This document shows positions 1,163-34,229 of a stretch of 64,000 bases of DNA, piece by piece. Position 1 is the first letter of the stretch; each line of letters starts with the position of its first letter. A program made the translations under genes and the position numbers. The notes beneath the pieces are model-generated. The model was not told where the DNA came from and did no database searches. It was given only the letters and a program-made list of their open reading frames with translations. The DNA lies in assembly GCA_006384855.1 (NCBI GenBank), contig VCJN01001789.1:1-64000 (forward strand), in the 5' to 3' direction. Source of the DNA: Tetraselmis striata. Taxonomy: Eukaryota; Chlorophyta; Chlorodendrophyceae; Chlorodendrales; Chlorodendraceae.

Positions 1163-1865
1163 ATGTCTACATTCATGGCTGCCGCTCGTGCGCCCGTGGT
1201 AGCCGGTAGCGCCGTGGCCGGACGCCAGCCCTCTCGCGCGCGCGCCAGCGTCCGCTGCGAGGCGCGATCCGCCTCCCGCAGCAGCGCCCCCGCGCCCGCT
1301 GCCGTCCTCGAGCTGTCCCGGCGCGACGCGATGCAACTGGCGGTGGGCACCGCCGTTCACGATGAGCGCGCTCCCCGCGGCGGCGGCAAAGACGCCAAAG
1401 GGGTTCCTGGGCGTGCGGGACCCGGCGGACGGTTACCAGTTCTTCTACCCCTTTGGCTGGCAGGAGGTGTCCATCCCCGGCCAGGACGTCGTCTTCAAGG
1501 ACGTTATCGAGCCGCTCGAGAGCGTGAGCGTGAACCTGCTTGAGGTTCCCGACAAGGAGAGCATCGCGGAGTACGGGGACGTGAACGAGGTCGCGTTCAC
1601 GCTGGCGGACAAGGTGCTGACGCCGCCCAGCCAGCCGGTGCAGATTCTGAAGGCCAAGGAGGACGTCTTCGAGGGCGTCACCTACTACACATTCGAGTTC
1701 CTCGTGGATGCCGGAAACTATAAGCGCCACGCGCTGGCCTCCGTCTGCGTGAACAACCACAAGTTCTACACGATGCTGACGGGCTGCAACGAGCGGAGGT
1801 GGAAGAAGACCGAGGGGAAGCTGAAGCAGATGGTGGACTCCTTCTCGACCTTCACCATCCTGTAA
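1163..1865 (+). CDS. PPL1: PsbP-like thylakoid lumen protein (PPL1-type), apparent frameshift in the targeting region
   Basis: The protein belongs to the PsbP-like family of the thylakoid lumen; PPL1 members assist photosystem II repair. The mature domain shows the family blocks DGYQFFYPFGWQEV, VFKDVIEPLESVSVN, YYTFEFLVDAGNYKRHA and FYTMLTGCNERRW, and ends with a TAA at 1863-1865. Upstream, from ATG 1163, is an Ala/Arg/Ser-rich plastid transit peptide followed by a twin-arginine-like lumen signal (LSRRDAMQLAVGTA) and an alanine-rich cleavage region (ALPAAAAK). The signal and the mature domain lie in different frames: the coding length of 703 nt has one base too many, and the shift falls between about 1350 and 1362. 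No intron of usable size can repair it. The internal ATG at 1362 gives the mature domain alone, without targeting. The cause may be a sequencing error, a strain-specific defect or a pseudogene. No introns were seen, unlike its neighbours. Confidence 0.85.
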
Positions 1866-9291: not shown

Positions 9292-10578
9292 TTCTCACTA
9301 GCAAAAAATCGTTTGACTGCACGACGCGCCGGCCGACGCTGATGGCCCGGTCCGCCACCTCCCCCTGAGGCGGCGAGAGCGGCGAAGCGGCCGTCAGAGC
9401 TGCCGAGTGGCTTAACGGTCCGTTACAGCGCACCTGCTGCTCAATAGCTCGACTGTGAGCGCTGGTGATGTGCAGCTATAGGCTAGTCGGGCCCAGTACC
9501 GGGGCAACCGCCGGTGCGGATAGCACCGCGTACTGGTGGACGGAGTAAAACCGGGGCGTCGTGCTTTTTTCCACCAGGCTCATTTCAGTGCTCGCGAGTC
9601 GCGGCAGCTCAGCAAGGCGGCGACGGTGCGTGACGCAGAGGGCTAGGCGTTGCAGGATTGTGCGCTTGCTTCGAAGGTTCTCATAGTGCAGTTGGAAATG
9701 GTGTTGACGCAGGTAGGGGGCGGGCAGGGCGGCGGGCGGGTCCGGCCGTGTACTGCCTGGTCGGAGTCGACTGCGCGTGCGGGGGTCGCACAGGAAATCG
9801 GTGTGGATAATCGCTCACCTGCCCCTATCCGGCCGCGGCTGGCGAGACGCGCTTAGCCCCGCACAGACGGTTGGGGCACTGAATGATAGATACAGGGTGG
9901 AGAAGGCGCGCGCGAAGAGGACACGAGAGCGCGGTGCCATCCGTGTGCGGCAGTTGCGGCTGTGCCCGGCCGATAGCCGAGTGGCTGGTCATTTTTCGCG
10001 CAGCAGATGGTCGTTGCCGGGCTGGGAGAGGAGGGGAAGGGGGTAGGTCCACTGCCGGGAACGCACCTGCCACACCGGCGGCCGTTGATGCGCCTGTCTT
10101 TCGCCAGGGGCAGCTATACGGAGGCGTGTATCGAGCTGTGGAGGCGGGTGGAAGTTCACGGCGTCGCCGCACAGGGATGGTTGCAAACAAAACGCCAAAC
10201 GACCGTCCGCAGCAGCTGCACGTCGGACTTCAAACCACCAAACCAATCCAGCAATAACGGCACCTACACGCTCCATCCGCGCCTTCTCTATCCGCGCCGA
10301 TCACAAATATTGCGACTACCCATAGCGACTTTGTACGAGATTAGCGGCCGCCCGCCTGCTGGCCCGCCAGTATCCGCCAATGTATCGGTACGGGTACCGG
10401 TAGTCGCTAGTCCCTAATAATCACCAGCAGTCGCTAATACTTTTAAAAGGATTCCTGGTATATAATCGAAAACACCACAGCCGCCACCGGCCGACAACAA
10501 CTGATGCATCCCAGAGCTTTTTTCCTTCCCCAGTCGTAGCGCTACTTTGCGTGCATTCTCTTGACGCTCTCCCTGTAA
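9292..10578. other. Spacer upstream of the minus-strand 679-aa gene
   Basis: No gene was recognised. The minus-strand gene starts at 9291, so its promoter should lie in 9292-9600. The right end, about 10505-10578, is half of a dispersed repeat interrupted by the TIR element that follows. Around 10395-10440 there are copies of a TAGTCGCTA motif and GGTACCGG. Confidence 0.5.
10505..10578 (-). repeat. Left half of a dispersed repeat split by the TIR element at 10579-12648
   Basis: Read on the minus strand this matches 30597-30662 and, more loosely, 40890-40985. Shared blocks on the plus strand here are TTTTTTCCTTCCCCAG, GTGCATTCTCTTGACG and CTCTCCCTGTAA. The other half continues after the element at 12649 (TAACCAAAAAGATA). 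The intact copy at 30597 shows the uninterrupted form. Confidence 0.75.
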
Positions 10579-12648
10579 GGCCAGTGAGATTTAATTGTCG
10601 GTTTTAGGTCCCCCCCCCCTCTGATTTGCGCCCCCCCTCCAGAGATTCTGTAGCTGGGTGATGTTCTATTTTAAAGTACTGTGCACCCTACTGCCAGCAC
10701 GCAAACTGCGTTGTAAGCGCCGGTTTGTTCAGTAGCAACCTACATTTGCGTAAGACTGTGCATGTACACTCATGGGAACAACATTAAGAGCTGAAACCAC
10801 ATAATTACAGTGGTTTATGGCTACAATACAAAGGCATTGCTCAGCACATCTAGTTGTCCGCTACTCTGCCGGCGGTGGCTCAGGTTTTTGCCCCGCGCCT
10901 TCTTTCCAGTTCTAGTGCACGAAGCAGTTGCTTGCCATTTGATAGCCCCTAGCATAATACTTCTCATTGTTATTTAGGCATGTCTGGCAAATACACCGTG
11001 GCGTGGTGAATACCGCTGCTAGCTTGTCATCAATGAAGGCGCCGTCTGGATCCATTGACATGCCAGCACACAGTGCACATAGCATTGGCTCGACAATGAC
11101 ATCGGCGTCCCCATCATAGGTCTTGCGGCGCTTGTTGCCAATGCTGTAGAATGTGAGCTCCACCACTTGTAAGTTGGCTGTCACACACAAACACATTGTG
11201 CAAGGGGTGATCTTGGTCCAATGGCTGCGTAACACCGACATATGCGTCGGAAGCCATGACGCCATGCAATGCTTGAGTAGCTAGCACCCTGCACCAAATG
11301 GCAAAGAACTCAGTCAAGGGATATATTAACATGCAAAATTGCAAAGTAAGAAAAAAAATATGCAACAGGCAGGCAAATGGGCACATGACCAGCACCTGCA
11401 TGCAGACTCCTCGTGCGCAGTGAATCGCGCAGCATGCTGCATGGTGGAAGGCGCCTTGTGCGAGTAGATGCACCTTTGCTTCCTGGATTTCGGCTTGTTG
11501 CATAGAACCAATCCCCTGATGTTGGCAGCTTTGCCAATGCTGAAATCCTTCTTGTTGGGAATGATGTGAATCATGGATTCCAGCGTCTCAATGGGTGCCG
11601 CTCATGCAGTTGCTTCTTGTGCATGCTGGGTAGCAGCAGCAGTAGCATGCCGCCACGGCCGCGAGCAACACTACCCCGTCCGGCCTGGCCACGGCCACGG
11701 CCATAGCCACGGCCGTTCCCGCTGCCTGTAGCACAGTGCGTTGCTTGACGCCGGGCCTTTGCATGCGCAATCAGGGACGGCTTGTGCTCACCTGTGAATG
11801 GCCTCCTCATTGACTCCGTGAGGGGCAGATATTGGATTTTGTCTTTCCTGTCCTCCTTATGACCTGTAGGGCGATCTCGAATTGGAAGTGCCTAGTGGGC
11901 ACATCCTCCATGACATCGTGTACGTTCACGTGCAGCAAACGGTTGGCGGTGACGCTGGCTGAGGGCCGCCGTCGCTTTCGCCCGGAGCCAGTGACTATGT
12001 CCTCGTGCTCCACGCACACCATCGTCACTTGCTCCACGAGGTCAAAGGACAACTCCGGGTCTATGTCCTTCGCCACATGCTGCATCAGCTCGTAGCAAGT
12101 GTGTGCTTGTAGCCAGTGCTCGTCAAAGACTTGCAGCGGTGCCCGCCCACCGCGTAGCCTGCCATCCCAGGTCGCGGCCACTTTCACAGTGCAGTTGGCG
12201 TTGCGTGCCATCGCGCCGTTTGGTCTTAGCTCGACGACGCGGCCGCTTACGGACCCTACCTCCGGCGCTAGACACTGGCTGGCACAGGTTGGTTTAATGG
12301 TGTTTGCTGCTCAGGGCATCCATTGCGCACCGGCCGGTATGCGTGCAGATGCATGCAGCGGCGCGGCGGTGGCGGCGCGTACATACCTACACTACGGGTA
12401 CCGGGTACTTACTCTGATGCGTGATAATCTTCCGATATCGCCTTTTTCACCTAGCTCATGTAAGTATACTTACCCTGGGTACGCTGCGTTCGTGCGCGAA
12501 AATACTAGTTGGCCCGGTTGCAGTACGGTTGGGAAGTACTGCCAATGTACTGGCTACACAATTATCGGGGTTATACTGAATAAATCCCCCCCCCCTCTGA
12601 TTTCGGCCAGAAAAGGACCCTAAAACCGACAATTAAATCTCACTGGCC
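10579..12648. mobile_element. 2.07-kb TIR transposon, PIF/Harbinger-like by its TAA target duplication
   Basis: The ends form near-perfect inverted repeats of about 33 bp; the left end begins GGCCAGTGAGATTTAATTGT and the right end is its complement, ending at 12648. The element is flanked by TAA on both sides (10576-10578 and 12649-12651), a three-base TWA duplication typical of PIF/Harbinger. The related copy of the host repeat at 30597 lacks the insert and one TAA, which proves the borders. Both ends carry a short C-run followed by CTCTGATTT just inside the inverted repeat. Minus-strand open frames inside include one with a Cys-rich block (CALCAGMSMDPDGAF and CICQTC) at about 10912-11200 and one at 12211-11810. 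I cannot recognise a DDE transposase, so it may be non-autonomous or degenerate. Confidence 0.8.
10912..12211 (-). pseudogene. Minus-strand coding remains inside the TIR element, unidentified
   Basis: Several open frames follow each other on the minus strand: 12211-11807 (contains ELMQHVAKDIDPELSFDLV and a basic patch GRKRRRP), 11503-11114 (hydrophobic, VLVMCPFACLLHIFF) and 11265-10912 (CxxC-type block CALC and CICQTC). They do not join into one frame. They may be exons of an element-borne gene or decayed coding sequence. No transposase signature was identified. Confidence 0.3.
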
Positions 12649-12845
12649 TAACCAAAAAGATATCCCAGAGCGAGGCCAGAGTATTTGTTCCGGGAAACTA
12701 CATCAAATTGGCAAGAGTAGTCGCTAAGAGATTACCGGGATGATGTCCATCCTAGAACATTCCAATAATAGGATATGGTCGTTGCAATATGATAAATCAA
12801 TAATGTTGTTTTCAGATAGAAACTATGAGTATACGTATTAAATTA

Positions 12846-13777
12846 GACAGGTCCGATTTAATGTCATGTTTTAGAACCCCCCCCCCCCCCTCTGTCCCCC
12901 CCCCTCTGCTTTATTTATATTGATCTCACAGTACTTAGTAGAACATGCCCAAAGTTGCATAGTAACTAATACCACTGGCATGACTTTTTTTAATGGTTTC
13001 AATGCAGGGCTGTGTGCAGGAGGGTGTTCCCTGCCATATGCAAGCAATATGGAGAGGGGCTGGGGCACTTTTTGGAACATCACCATATTTATTATTTCAC
13101 TCAGCATCATGGCAACCCAACCATACGGTGGCCCTATCCACCCCTCCATGTAGTGCTATGATGCTGCTAAGCTGATATATTTATGCCACGGCTATGTGTT
13201 GCTACTCTCACCGCGTTGCATTGCCATGCTGCCTGCCTATCAAGTTCTTGCATCTTCTCAGGAGAGTCGGCCTTGGCGCCCCTCACGAGCACTTGATAGC
13301 CTGCACGCTCACAGGTTTTGCACAAAGGCAAAACAGTAATGTAGACAATCAGCAACACCTCATCTACGAGTCCTCCGTCTTCATCACATGGACATCAGCA
13401 CAACGCATTATCAGTCGGAGCGGTGTGGCAAGCGTGCTGAAGGGGGGCTGGGGGCAGCACATAATGGCAGCATACCTCACGTGATGATCCTGCACACATT
13501 GCACACAAGGTGGGGATGCACTACCAAGTGCATGGGCCAGCGAGACGGGGTGTTTGTCCATCCTAGCCAAGCGCCGTCCAAGGATATGCCTGCGTGGATA
13601 TAATAACGGCGGTGGCGGTGCGGGTATGTGCCCCTAGCCGCTCATGCACAGGTCCCAGCCGCGGAGAACTCTTAAGCACGTGAACATAAAGGTGAGGCCA
13701 CTCACAAAGTGAACCCCCCCTCCCTATGTTTATCCGGAAAGTAGAGTACTAAAACATAACATTAAATCCGACCTGCC
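12846..13777. mobile_element. 0.93-kb TIR element related to the neighbouring 2.07-kb element
   Basis: Imperfect inverted repeats of about 27 bp bound the element: the left end begins GACAGGTCCGATTTAATGTC and the right end is complementary with three or so mismatches. TTA flanks both sides (12843-12845 and 13778-13780), again a TWA-type duplication. The terminal sequence shares GATTTAAT...GT...GTTTTAG with the element at 10579-12648, so both belong to one family. Just inside the left end is a long C-run, as in its relative. A minus-strand open frame at 13358-13167 contains CKTCERAGYQ. It is short and probably non-autonomous. Confidence 0.7.
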
Positions 13778-20429: not shown

Positions 20430-21125
20430 GCTTTAACATATGCGCACTACAAACAAAACTACAAGCAACTATGAAAGGTTGCCAGCAAAAGAGAGACATT
20501 AGCCTGAAACCAAGGTCAAGCAGAGGCCAGGGAGCCAAGAACCAAGGAAGAACCAAGGGAACCACGAAGTAGCCAAGCTGCCATGTACCAAATGGTCAAG
20601 GGAAGCACCGAAGCCACGGAACGACACCTGAAAACAAAATAGGAAACATGAAAACACTGGGGAACACCGCCCCGGGGTAGGCCATCAGCCGCGGCGAGAA
20701 CTAACGCTTGCAGCCAATGACCCGGGTCATAGCAACACATGCCGACGAGCGACGCGACGCAAGCGCAGGGAGCACCATCACGTGCCGCGCGCGCCGCCGC
20801 GACCCCGCGAAGAACGTTGTCTGCATGTGCCATGTCCAATTAAATTATTGGGAAACTCCATAAACTAGTTTAGATTAATTGCATCAGTGCTTTAACATGT
20901 GCGCACTACAAACAGAACTAACAACAACTATGAAAGGCTGCCAGCAATAGAGAGACATAAGCCCGAAAATAAACAAGGTCGAGCAAGAGGCCAGGGAGCC
21001 AAAAACCAAGGGAGAGCCAAGGGAACCACGAAGTCGCCAAGCTGCCAGGAACCAAAGGGGCCACCGCTATGGGGTAGGCCATCAGCCGCGGCGAGGACGC
21101 TTGCAACCAATGATCCGGGTCACAT
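20430..21125 (+). repeat. Tandem pair of retroelement-end repeats (20430-20730 and 20887-21125)
   Basis: Two copies of a 240-300 bp unit follow each other. Shared blocks are CAGTGCTTTAACAT, GCGCACTACAAACA, CAACTATGAAAGG, GAGGCCAGGGAGCCAA, GGGAACCACGAAGT and GGCCATCAGCCGCGGCGAG. A truncated third copy is at 24228-24270 (GCGCACTACAAACAGAAC). They border the recombinase and gag-like remnants and are probably its terminal or internal repeats. A shared GGGAAACYCCATA..ACTAGTTTAGA motif occurs at 18960, 20850 and 23876. Confidence 0.65.
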
Positions 21126-21175
21126 AGCAACTAGTTTAGATCGTTACTCGATTGCGCCGCGAAAACGAGTAGCAA

Positions 21176-22150
21176 CTAGTCGCTATTTGCTACTCCGAAC
21201 TCCGACGGCGTTGGCGGCAGACGCTGCTCCCTTGCGAAGGCTGTGTGAGGTCCAGGAAGTGCCGGCGGGAGGGGCAGCACCGACAAGACGGACGGCTGTA
21301 GACAGCCAGTCCGACATCGTAGCGGCGGTCCAAGGTTTTGACTGCTCGCTTGGGGTGACCGCCCAGACGTTTGTTTCAGTCTAGCAACAGTAACTAGGAA
21401 GATAGACTGTACGATTTCGATGAAATGGTGCAGGAGACGTGCAACTCGGGGGTGTTCTGACACCGGAAGGAGAAGCACGCGCATGTCGTCGGGTCCCCGT
21501 CGGCCAGCGCGGCCCTTCTCGCAGTACACCTGCAGGGTAATGTTATCATTATAATCGTCGACATGCACATCCCGCACTCGGCAGGAGACGCCAGTAAGTC
21601 CCCTGGCAAAGAACATGAAGTTGACAACCGAGGCCACGAGGGCTCGGCAGTCGTGCTGGTACTCTGTGGTGGGAGCAGACACAATCAACTCGGCCTTCGC
21701 GACGAAACTGTAAGCTACATCATCAGACCGAGGAACTCGCAAAGGGGCGGCTTCCAGACGGCGCTGCCGTAGCATCAGCCCACGCCTAGCTGCAGTAAGA
21801 TGTAGGCTGTCCTTGGCGATTGGGTCGAGGTTGTGCGGCTCGAAGAACGTGTTGATTGCGGACAGGTAGGGTTGCAGAGACTGAGCTCCAATGTGCCCTC
21901 GCTCACCAATCCAGGCAACGTACCGGACGACAGTAGCAGTGGTCGCCTCTAGCGGGTTGATGCTCTCGGAGTCGTGGCAGAACTCCGCGAACTGAGACAG
22001 TCTGCCGGCGTAGCTTTTGAGTGTCTGAGCGGTGAGGGAGCTGGAGAGCAGGTCGAGCGTCCGCTGTCCCAACTCGTCCGAGCCGAAAGCATCATGCAGT
22101 CGAGATCGCAGTGAAGCAGCCCGGGGAGCGACAGCTTCGGGCTCGTCAAT
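21176..22150 (-). pseudogene. Tyrosine recombinase remnant of a DIRS-like retrotransposon
   Basis: A minus-strand open frame of about 300 codons begins with an integrase SAM-like core-binding domain (TAQTLKSYAGRLSQFAEFC, ATTATVVRYVAWIGERG, LQPYLSAINTFFEPHNLDP). It enters the catalytic domain with VVNFMFFARGLTGVSCRVRD, which holds the first catalytic arginine. Beyond LLHHFIEIV (about 21420) the frame changes to low-complexity sequence, so the HxxR box and catalytic tyrosine are missing or frameshifted. Together with the gag-like region upstream this looks like a DIRS-type element that has lost its reverse transcriptase and RNase H segment. A Crypton origin is an alternative, but Cryptons lack a gag-like frame. 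Confidence 0.6.
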
Positions 22151-22684
22151 TACGTATGTGCGCCATTTTACCGACAGAGTACCCGGGGGGCGACTACTGT
22201 TTGCAAAGTACTCGGCAGCAGCGGTTAGGTTCCCGGCGGTTGGCCGGTAGTTGCTGGACTACAGGTTTGCAGTAGCACCGGTACGGGTTTGCGGGGCTAG
22301 GTTCAGGTAAGAGGGCCGCCCCGCGCGCCCTTCGCGCTCGTCGTAGCGTCTGTCACGCGCTTAACGTACACGCGCGAAGCTTGGTCGTTGCGAACCAATT
22401 GTAACACGCAGTGTGACAACCGACGGACGCAGTGATGAAATGGTACGGGAGGCGGTTGGTTGAGCCGCCATGTACATGTGTGCGGATGGTTGAGCCGCAC
22501 TCGGTTGTAGCTGTAAGAAGCGCCGCACCGAGGAAGGTCTAAATGAAGTCTGTAAGGTGGGGGGGTCAGGTTCTGATACATGGCGCTCATCCCGCCGTTG
22601 AGCTGCAAGGGTGCGCTTTGCGGCGGTCACCGAAAGGTGGCCTCGCAAGGCTCTAGCAGCTCCGACGAGAGGCGCCCCACACCG

Positions 22685-23640
22685 TCACTCGTGCTCACCT
22701 CCCCGGCCACGCCCGCGTCCACCGCCACGTCCTCGTACACGCCCGCGACCTGCGGCTGCTGCCGCCACCCGAGCAGTAGCGGTTGCTTTGGCGCTGCTGG
22801 CCACAGTCGCCTCGAAGACGCGACGCTCGTAGTCCCTCACGAGGTCCCCAAAAATCGCGGAACCCAGATGCTCAGAAGCAGGCTGAAAGTGCTGAGCTCG
22901 CAGCACGTCCATAATACCTTGGTCACCGTGCACACGCTTGACGTCATTATGCCTCCGTAGGAAGGCCAAACGAAAGCGAAACGCCTTGTCGATGGCTTCG
23001 GCGTGGGTCCGAGCTCTCGCGAGGTAGGGGATGAAGTCCTGATTTGCAGCAGGGACGTAATAAGGCAGCAGCTTGTCAAGAGCCACGAAAAGTGCGGCCA
23101 TGTGGGCGCCGAAACACGACATCCATAGATACTCCTCCTGGGCCGGCAGACGCCGGTCATCCTGCTTGAGGTACTCGTTCGTTGGGTCGGTGCTCAAGGG
23201 GAAGAGTCCAGGCACCCGGCTGACCGGTGGAACGGCCTCGTAACCAGACTCTGCTCGCTGCAGTAGCTCTGGCACCGCGAGGTAGTGACCGAGGTAGTGC
23301 CAGAGCGTGAGTGACGAGGATGACTGTCATCCTCGTCACTCACGGATTTTGCTCCGACACGGCCGCTCTGGGCTAGCTCTAGCAAGTCGGGGCGCTCTGC
23401 GGCTCCCCCGCTGCCTGTCGGCTGTCCCGCGATGCGCTGCCCGGAACCGGAACCATGTGCCCCTTCTCCATCAACAACGCGCTCACGAGCCGTCAATTGG
23501 GACAACGCTGTTGCAAGCTCGCACAGTAATAATGTAGAATGGGCCTTCACGTCTGTGTGTAGCGACTCGAGCGTCGGCTCAACGACGGGTTTTTCTCCAT
23601 CTGGCATGGTAACGCACGGACGTACGGATGAGAATATCAC
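22685..23640 (-). pseudogene. Gag-like region of the DIRS-like element, disrupted by a palindromic insertion
   Basis: Two minus-strand frames cover this region. 23640-23345 runs from MPDGEKPVVEPTLESLHTDV to QSGRVGAKSVSDEDD, and 23275-22685 from LLQRAESGYEAV to an arginine/glycine-rich tail (GRGRVRGRGGGRGRGRGGE) typical of nucleic-acid binding. The two parts are joined in one frame in the related copy at 57145-57325 (SGRVGAKSTSDADDYLAV then LLQRAESGNEDV). Here an extra palindromic stretch at 23276-23320 shifts the frame. The assignment as gag is inferred from position upstream of a tyrosine recombinase and from the RGG tail. Confidence 0.55.
23266..23343. repeat. Two adjacent perfect hairpins inside the gag-like region
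   Basis: Hairpin 1 has 10-bp arms GCTCTGGCAC (23266-23275) and GTGCCAGAGC (23297-23306). Hairpin 2 has 18-bp arms GTGAGTGACGAGGATGAC (23307-23324) and its exact complement (23326-23343) around a single T. Compared with the copy at 57245-57300 the second arm of each is extra sequence. Confidence 0.85.
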
Positions 23641-23970
23641 ACACGGGTGGTGAGCCGGGTGTGGTCTTGAACAACTTGGAGTGACTTTGCTCGCAACAGG
23701 TTACGAGACAGTTTTAACATCGCTGCGTGTAACACAGCGACAAATGGAAGATGGCAGGCTCAGCTGTTATGGCTGCTTTTATGTTGCACCCAAAAAGGGC
23801 GCAACGACAGGTGCCTAGTTCCCGTACCACTGAGCAGCACTTGTAGCTGAAAAGCGGTTAGATAGGTCAAGGGAGGAAACCCCACATACTAGTTTAGATC
23901 ATACTGTAGTAGCGAATTACATACACACGGCGATTTCACACACTGGTGCAACCAGTACCGGTACCAGCAG

Positions 23971-30596: not shown

Positions 30597-30665
30597 ATCT
30601 CTTTGGTTACAGGGAGAGCGTCAAAAGAATGCACGGAAAGTACTGGGGAAGGAAAAAGATTTAAG
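30597..30665 (+). repeat. Dispersed repeat, intact copy (empty site for the 10579-12648 insertion)
   Basis: The sequence ctttGGTTACAGGGAGAGCGTCA...GAATGCACGGAAAG...GGGGAAGGAAAAAG is the complement of 12649-12662 joined to 10505-10578. It carries a single TTA where the interrupted copy has TAA on both sides of the inserted element. A third copy is at 40890-40985. Confidence 0.8.
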
Positions 30666-31024
30666 CATAACCCTCTTAGCGCCGGGCCGCGGGGCCCGGC
30701 GATGTGGCAGGTAATTGTCGTCGTCGTCATCGTCCATCGTCGTCATCGTCGCGCGCTGCTTGCGTAGATGAACGGGCGCGTGACTGCGCGCGCATGTCAC
30801 CGCGCCGCCGCGCTTTTGCTGGCGGCCTCTAACTAATCCTTACAACGACGATGCGCTGCCAGCGGCAGGATAAGAACCCGCCTCCACACACAATCTCACA
30901 CAGACATTCGCTCTGCCCGAACCTACTCGCCACTCACTGCCGACGACTCCGCGCAGCTGACAAGCTTTCCTTGTTCTTACTGCGACAATACACTGCTCCG
31001 CGCAAGGTTGAGGAAGGAGGTGCG

Positions 31025-33397: not shown

Positions 33398-34229
33398 CAC
33401 ACTCATCCCACCGCCTTGTTATGCGAAAGGGAGACTTCTTGTGGCCATGCAATGTTCGCCTCTCAACAAGCTCCCTCGTGCATCTACGTGGTTAGTTGAC
33501 AAAACACTTTAAGCAACACTAAATCTACTGGTTGTCATTTCATCCCATGTTAGCCGCCCCGCCCTCCGTCGTCTCTATCTCTTGCATGCGGGAACCTTCA
33601 CGTGCCCCCCCACCCCCTCCTGCCTTAGTGAAGCCTTGCCTCGTCTTGTTGGCGGTGCCGCCAGGATGTGCGAGTTCTTCCACATCCCCTTCCAGAGCGG
33701 CGACAACGACATCCTGCGCGAGATGGCGCGCGGCTACACGCACGAGCGCTACCGCCAGATCATGCACAACATCCGGCGCTACATGCCCGACGCCAGCATC
33801 AGCGGCGACGCGATCGTGGGCTTCCCGGGCGAGACGGAGGAGCAGTATTTGCGTACCGAGGCGCTTGTGCGCGAGGTGGGCTTCGACCGCGTCAACACCG
33901 CGGCATACTCGCCGCGCCCCAACACGCCCGCCGCGGAGTGGGACAACCAGGTGGCGGACCTCATCAAGGCGGACCGCCTCAACCGGCTCAACGCGGTGGT
34001 GATGGAGGTCGCGGAGGAGCGCAGCCAGCGCTTCCTGGGCCGCGAGCTGGAGGTGCTGGTGGAGGGGCCCAACCCCAAGGCGCCCGGGCAGCTGCAGGGC
34101 CGCAGCCGGCACAACAAGCTCGTGTTCTGCGACGGCGACGGCGATGCGCTCAAGGGGCAGCTGGTGCGGGTGAAGATTGAGGAGGCGCGCGCCTTCAGCC
34201 TCTTTGGCACCATGACCGCGGCGCTCTGA
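31025..34229 (+). CDS. miaB: MiaB-type tRNA-2-methylthio-N6-isopentenyladenosine synthase (organellar), seven exons
   Basis: This radical-SAM methylthiotransferase adds the 2-methylthio group to i6A37 of tRNA. It is close to bacterial/cyanobacterial MiaB, so a plastid or mitochondrial role is likely. Exons in phase: 31025-31106, 31253-31450, 31579-31652, 31809-32076, 32359-32691, 33190-33331 and 33665-34229 (553 aa). The N-terminal iron-sulfur domain shows all three cysteines: [22 protein letters not shown] and [11 protein letters not shown]. The radical-SAM domain has the CxxxCxxC motif in [17 protein letters not shown], then [12 protein letters not shown] and the TRAM domain (RELEVLVEG to FSLFG). 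The first about 110 residues are Arg/Ala/Gly-rich without homology, fitting a transit peptide; the first two exons and the start are the least certain part. Introns 1 and 6 run into C-tracts directly after the donor, and intron 6 also has a CA microsatellite. Confidence 0.9.
33363..33401. repeat. CA microsatellite in MiaB intron 6
   Basis: A (CA)n tract with one interruption directly follows a C-run (33340-33360) just downstream of the donor at 33332. Confidence 0.9.

What the first reader, a model, noticed from the sequence alone, without database searches (positions are those of the whole stretch)
10505..12662. Transposon insertion with its empty site present in the same window
The host repeat at 10505-10578 stops at CCCTGTAA, a 2.07-kb element with 33-bp inverted ends follows, and the repeat resumes at 12649 with TAACCAAAAAGATA. 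The complement of 30597-30665 reads CCCTGTAACCAAAGAGATA with no insert and a single TAA. This shows directly that the element duplicated TAA on insertion. A TWA duplication and GG-starting ends are known for PIF/Harbinger; the assignment to that superfamily is inference because no DDE transposase was recognised.
Basis: partly seen in the sequence, partly recalled or inferred. Interest (0 to 1): 0.72.

Follow-up and report, generated by a model that had tools for sequence, protein, structure and literature searches.

The report
Jumping gene with its empty site
A 2-kb crippled jumping gene in what looks like a green alga's genome sits in one copy of a locus and is absent from a near-identical copy, and a fuller relative carries a transposase-like protein that matched no family in the protein libraries searched.

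Summary
A 2,070-bp element (10579-12648) has perfect 30-bp inverted ends and TAA on both sides. Besides the diverged empty copy in the window, contig C974 holds the same flanks (about 98% identical) without the element and with one TAA. Repeat copies at another insertion (L003) also read one TAA.
In the 224-Mb source genome, 24 of 28 copies read at both ends have identical TAA (16) or TTA (8) flanks. Thirteen ~2.07-kb copies differ by a median 1.5%, so spread was recent.
A 5.9-kb relative (C541) is collinear except for 3.9 kb that the window element lacks. That stretch encodes a DDE-like protein (DDKxKV, DGGPDHN, NxAERVM), conserved between families, with no convincing Pfam or PDB match. Two further families with this protein also have GGC-starting ends and 3-bp duplications. 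DDE_Tnp_4 genes are abundant separately.
A very distant PIF/Harbinger relative is not excluded.

The parts
10576..10578 (+). left target-site duplication TAA
   Evidence: single TAA in the empty sites
10579..10608 (+). left terminal inverted repeat, 30 bp perfect
   Evidence: 87 genome matches at up to 3 mismatches against 0 for the reversed control
10579..12648 (.). non-autonomous TIR transposon, 2,070 bp
10864..11290 (-). remnant of the C-terminal part of the transposase-like gene
   Evidence: tblastn with an L010 frame, two pieces, 74 and 78% aa identity, E 5e-54
11392..11595 (-). remnant of a C-terminal part
   Evidence: tblastn with an L010 frame, 87% aa identity, E 7e-35
11727..11864 (-). 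remnant of a C-terminal part, reaching the deletion junction
   Evidence: tblastn with an L010 frame, 87% aa identity, E 1e-21
11860..11862 (.). junction (3 bp, TGA) where 3,899 bp present in the 5.9-kb relative are missing
   Evidence: element 1-1281 matches relative 1-1321, element 1285 onward matches relative 5221 onward
11828..12220 (-). remnant of the N-terminal part of the transposase-like gene (the match runs about 30 bp past the junction)
   Evidence: tblastn with an L010 frame, 86% aa identity over 131 aa, E 1e-80
12619..12648 (-). right terminal inverted repeat
12649..12651 (+). right target-site duplication TAA
30597..30665 (-). diverged copy of the host repeat without the element (paralogous empty site)
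12846..13777 (.). second, older TIR element of a related type: 29-bp ends with 3 mismatches, TTA flanks, weak remnant of the same protein

Best explanation
The element is a non-autonomous cut-and-paste DNA transposon. It arose by an internal deletion of about 3.9 kb in a 5.9-kb-type element. It keeps both ends and the outer coding parts but has lost the catalytic core. It is moved in trans by a DDE-type transposase from larger relatives, which recognises the GGC-starting ends and cuts a 3-bp TWA target with a staggered cut, giving the TAA or TTA duplication. Shown: borders, duplication, precise empty sites, many near-identical copies, a collinear larger relative with a conserved protein gene. 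Inferred: that this protein is the transposase, that its DDK, DGGPDH and AER motifs hold the catalytic D, D and E, that it acts in trans, and that the system is or was recently active.
For: Empty site on C974 with flanks 96.8-98.4% identical and one TAA. Two repeat copies looked at (L072, L073) show one TAA at the L003 site, and window 30597-30683 shows one TAA at the C221 site, though only some 9 bp align left of that point. 24 of 28 copies have identical TAA or TTA flanks. 13 copies of about 2.07 kb have pairwise difference 0.2-2.2%, median 1.5%, mostly star-like, with L015-L018 as a subgroup and L002/L006 as a close pair; the long flank pieces of the two alleles differ by 1.6-1.8%. L010: same ends, same TAA, 90-92% identical outer parts, 3,899 bp extra in the middle. 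A 138-aa stretch from the extra part gives 59 matches in the genome at E up to 1e-3, some contigs giving two or more. Against the C511 relative, three coding stretches have dN/dS of about 0.17, 0.12 and 0.10 with most change at third positions; their dS of 1.4-2.8 is near saturation. Families B (5,743 and 5,730 bp; TAT and TTA) and C (CTA, one copy) carry the same protein with GGC-starting ends. The D2-E motifs are conserved in an 11-row alignment, with 43 residues between D45 and E89.
Against: No assay and no structure model; a RNase H fold is not shown. No match below E 0.028 in Pfam or PDB for the proteins; one search gave Pollen_allerg_2 at E 0.0088 for a family-B frame, 16.9 bits against a cut-off of 28.2, which I take as chance. 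4 of 28 copies have non-identical flanks. The 2.07-kb group is only about 90% identical to L010, so L010 itself is not its direct parent. The motifs are not invariant: row L034 lacks DGGPD, and the first motif reads HDK in C511, DKK in L032 and GDK in L036. Several genomic copies have stops, C511 among them.
Confidence: 0.8

Rival explanations
1. The transposase is a highly diverged branch of the PIF/Harbinger-ISL2EU-Spy (PHIS) group, so that the first reader's filing is right at the level of the larger group.
For: TWA duplications and GG-starting ends fit PHIS as described in PMC4482050 (passages) and PMC10045372 (passages). Lack of a Myb/SANT partner does not exclude PHIS: Spy has one protein only (PMC4482050 passages) and PHISTA lacks Myb/SANT (PMC12730594 passages). 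The layout of a short strand, D, then an ER-containing helix resembles the TDKGFD...VERHF layout of the genome's DDE_Tnp_4 proteins by eye.
Against: 0 of 11 members match DDE_Tnp_4 in Pfam with the limit set at E 1, though the program's filters drop most matches above about 0.1. Profile comparison probability 0.2% (shallow profiles, 11 and 4 rows). No Myb/SANT match in the 7 L010 frames scanned.
Confidence: 0.2
2. The element belongs to another named superfamily without a usable Pfam model or outside my reach, such as AcademX or Novosib, and is new only to my tools.
For: AcademX makes 3-4-bp duplications (PMC10045372 passage). Repbase and Dfam profiles were not available. I recall, from no call, similar DGGPDH and AERVMS strings in uncharacterised invertebrate proteins, which would mean a wider distribution.
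Against: No XPG nuclease or helicase match in the L010 frames scanned. The paper defining the Academ lineages is not held. Zator, also 3 bp, is recalled to match a Pfam model of the ISAzo13/transposase-36 type; no such match was seen.
Confidence: 0.3
3. The 2-kb element is moved by the genome's ordinary PIF/Harbinger transposases, and the C541 gene is a passenger.
For: 150 DDE_Tnp_4 matches were scored in the genome, and the target is the classic TWA.
Against: Families B and C, with different ends, carry the same protein inside GGC-starting ends with 3-bp duplications, and outer coding parts of this gene make up much of the window element itself.
Confidence: 0.07
4. The empty site on C974 is a precise excision rather than the pre-insertion state.
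For: Sequence alone cannot give direction for one pair.
Against: Another copy of the same host repeat is continuous across the point (window 30597-30665), so empty is most likely the ancestral state.
Confidence: 0.05

Closest known systems
PIF/Harbinger (PHIS group)
   Same: TWA target duplication, GG-starting inverted ends, non-autonomous derivatives
   Different: The larger relative's protein has no DDE_Tnp_4 match, no Myb/SANT second protein was recognised, and a Cys-rich C-terminal part is seen by eye; TAT and CTA duplications occur at single sites in related families
Zator
   Same: 3-bp duplication (PMC10045372 passage) and a DDE-type protein
   Different: No match to the ISAzo13/transposase-36 type of Pfam model; the link of Zator to that model is recalled
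Plavaka B / EnSpm (CMCT group)
   Same: 2- or 3-bp duplications
   Different: [quoted passage not shown] here the ends are GGC..GCC and only 43 residues lie between D and E with no such motif in the alignment
Ac/Ds-type autonomous/non-autonomous pairs
   Same: Internal deletion derivative keeps the ends and outnumbers the coding element
   Different: Unrelated ends, duplication length and protein (Ac/Ds recalled)

Membership tests
PIF/Harbinger | TWA 3-bp target duplication | tested here: met
   16 TAA and 8 TTA of 28 copies with both ends; 4 not identical
PIF/Harbinger | DDE_Tnp_4-type transposase in full-length relatives | tested here: not met
   0 of 9 frames, 7 of L010 and 2 of the window, and 0 of 11 aligned members match DDE_Tnp_4; hhalign against four own-genome DDE_Tnp_4 rows 0.2% (low power)
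PIF/Harbinger | second ORF with Myb/SANT domain | tested here: inconclusive
   no Myb match in the 7 L010 frames scanned, but an intron-split domain could be missed and some PHIS groups lack it
Zator | ISAzo13/transposase-36-type DDE protein | tested here: not met
   no such match among 11 members; that Pfam holds the model is recalled
EnSpm/Plavaka (CMCT) | C(2)C and H(3-4)H between second D and E; mostly CA..TG ends | tested here: not met
   alignment A1 has neither motif; ends are GGCC..GGCC
Kyakuja-Dileera-Zisupton | KDZ transposase domain; 7-8-bp duplication | tested here: not met
   no KDZ match among 11 members; duplication is 3 bp; the genome search for KDZ found nothing but no control rang
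AcademX | Academ transposase with XPG nuclease, 3-4-bp duplication | tested here: inconclusive
   duplication length fits and no nuclease match was seen in L010 frames; no Academ transposase profile was used
DDE transposons in general | RNase H-like fold with D, D, E | not tested
   only sequence motifs were seen; no structure was predicted, see Tried and rejected

The most novel reading that the evidence does not exclude
A eukaryotic DNA-transposon superfamily that the searched libraries do not hold: GGC-starting inverted ends, 3-bp TWA-like duplications, and a large multi-exon DDE transposase with DDKxKV, DGGPDHN and NxAERVM motifs and a Cys-rich C-terminal part. It would be present in several families in one alga, with recent transposition visible between two alleles.
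Probability: 0.3. Interest if true: 0.62.

Novelty: new variant of a known kind. Interest (0 to 1): 0.42.

Why it matters
A deletion derivative with precise empty sites, near-identical copies and larger relatives in the same genome makes end recognition, target choice and trans-mobilisation directly testable. If the DDE-like protein is a lineage without a library model, its elements could be misfiled as PIF/Harbinger from the TWA duplication and GG ends alone. The case shows that these two features are not sufficient for that filing.

Tried and rejected
PIF/Harbinger by transposase: Pfam scans, PDB phmmer and hmmsearch, hhalign against own-genome DDE_Tnp_4: nothing convincing. PHROGs at E up to 0.01: 0 of 11 members. 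Relatives in other collections: viral contigs with P0002, A1 and an L040 frame and genome contigs with A1: none confirmed. KDZ in the genome: none, but no control rang. Empty site for L010: its left flank is a 90-93% repeat over only about 160-177 of the 200 letters given, so no clean empty site was read. Literature for a named match: search listings, and passages of PMC9587614, PMC4482050, PMC12477816, PMC8226300, PMC12730594, PMC11071193 and PMC10045372; no paper was read whole, and none of what I saw describes this protein. The 1719-2083 stretch was read in a wrong frame (3 and 2 stops) and served only as an unplanned out-of-frame contrast. In one search codons with a stop on either side were dropped. 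Nine of the 20 loci were left out of alignment A1 (L033, L035, L038, L041, L042, L045, L046, L047, L048): some hold stops in the match, the others are near-copies of rows kept. Species: not named; green alga inferred from a PsbP gene in the window; the paper search did not settle it.

Full report
Observation. The window shows a 2,070-bp element at 10579-12648 with perfect 30-bp inverted ends, flanked by TAA. The complement of 30597-30665 is a diverged copy of the host repeat that reads through the point with one TAA.

Better empty sites. Searching the source genome with the left 100 bp found contig C974 at 100%. It matches the window over 1,362 bp on the left at 98.2%, over the last 218 bp before the point at 96.8%, and over 1,505 bp on the right at 98.4%. 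It lacks exactly the element and one TAA and reads CCCTGTAACCAAAAAGATA. The two contigs behave like two alleles of one locus, although a duplication was not excluded. For a second insertion, copy L003, the two repeat copies I looked at (L072, L073) read ...GCAATAACC... with one TAA. For a third, the C221 copy, window 30597-30683 reads CGGCGCTAAGAGGG with one TAA on the complement; only some 9 bp align to the left of that point, so this case is weaker. The same host repeat was thus hit by this family at two different TAA sites.

Copies. The element gives 148 matching stretches in the 224-Mb genome, from 40 scored of 113 candidates, so a lower bound. Twelve places match the full 1-2070 at 97-100%, the window included; C2544 matches in two pieces. 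Among the copies fetched, shorter ones cluster near 0.8 and 1.5 kb. I read the ends of 29 copies (28 loci plus L065); L026 lacked one end. Of the other 28, 16 had TAA/TAA, 8 TTA/TTA and 4 non-identical flanks (one search shows the flanks of the first 28 loci). Thirteen copies of about 2.07 kb differ pairwise by 0.2-2.2%, median 1.5%, each 0.3-1.3% from the majority. The pattern is mostly star-like, with L015-L018 forming a subgroup and L002 and L006 a close pair, and fits a recent burst.

The larger relative. Copy L010 (C541) is 5,924 bp, has the same ends and a TAA duplication, and aligns at 90-92% in three pieces with the outer parts of the window element; 3,899 bp lie between, where the window element has only a 3-bp TGA junction. 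The window element keeps minus-strand remnants of the N-terminal part (86% over 131 aa) and C-terminal parts (74-87%) of the L010 gene, but nothing significant of the two central stretches P0001 and P0002 (best E 7.8). It is a deletion derivative. Two other long copies are derivatives with something nested in them: a chromodomain-type gypsy LTR element with identical 437-bp LTRs in C914 (the type is read by eye) and a tyrosine-recombinase-type element in C221 (the Pfam match is to its relative in the window).

The protein. A 138-aa stretch of L010 gives 59 matches in the genome. An alignment of 11 of the 20 loci fetched, chosen by me, shows D45GGPDHN and AE89R with 43 residues between; row L034 lacks DGGPD. 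An upstream stretch carries DDKxKV and VGEP in most members, with HDK in C511, DKK in L032 and GDK in L036. Against the C511 relative, three stretches of 213, 118 and 118 codons have dN 0.23, 0.20, 0.28 and dS 1.37, 1.67, 2.81; dS is near saturation, so the ratios are rough, but third positions clearly change most. The D, D, E assignment is mine and inferred.

Other families with the same protein. Family B (C1546, C1983) is 5,743 and 5,730 bp, with ends GGCCTGGAAGATTTTATCCGTTGTCTTTGGTGG and TAT and TTA duplications. Family C (C63) has imperfect GGCG-starting ends and CTA on both sides; this rests on one copy, since the second (C2373) is truncated. The C511 relative begins TTA|GGCCAGTAGG; its other end was not found. 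So the protein travels with GGC-starting ends and 3-bp duplications in families with different ends, which supports it as the transposase.

Filing. PIF/Harbinger is described as TWA-duplicating, with a DDE protein and, mostly, a Myb/SANT protein (PMC4482050, passages). The duplication fits; neither protein was found. Absence of the Myb protein is not decisive, because some PHIS groups lack it. DDE_Tnp_4 genes are abundant in this genome (150 matches over the cut-off from 150 scored of 187 candidates), so the model works here and does not match these proteins. The hhalign test (0.2%) used shallow profiles and does not exclude distant kinship. Plavaka/EnSpm, KDZ and Zator features are not met as far as tested; Academ could not be tested. 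Novelty rests on the searches listed in Tried and rejected and on libraries without Repbase or Dfam.

Mechanism. Shown: precise insertion with 3-bp duplication, and many recent copies without a catalytic core. Inferred: a staggered 3-bp cut by a DDE transposase made elsewhere in the genome, acting in trans.

Verdict. Observation confirmed and strengthened; superfamily guess not supported.

Noticed in passing
window 12846-13777: A second 932-bp TIR element about 200 bp away, TTA on both sides, ends similar to the first (GATTTAAT..GTTTTAG). It is on both alleles at 98%. The 38 other places of 40 scored (586 candidates) are 78-84% identical in their best stretches, so the family is older; a weak remnant of the same protein is inside (E 2e-7).
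   Followed up: partly
window about 20900-23900: Tyrosine-recombinase element (Phage_int_SAM_1 match) of the same type as a roughly 3.2-kb insert nested inside a derivative copy of the finding's family at C221 (L065), 87-88% identical over 21200-23902.
   Followed up: partly
L009 1343-8361 (C914): LTR retroelement with identical 437-bp LTRs nested in a 2.07-kb copy of the finding's element, so it arrived recently and after that copy.
   Followed up: partly
window 30597-30683 and L065: One copy of the host repeat in the window shows the empty state for two different insertions of this family, at two TAA sites.
   Followed up: partly
source genome G000: 150 DDE_Tnp_4 (PIF/Harbinger-type) matches from 150 scored of 187 candidates, many in open frames of about 500 aa.
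   Followed up: no
window 1203-1865 and 33513-34229: A PsbP match and a radical-SAM/TRAM match; the first points to a green alga-like host genome.
   Followed up: no
L017, L025, L027, L028: Four copies with non-identical 3-bp flanks; mutation or recombination between copies was not distinguished.
   Followed up: no
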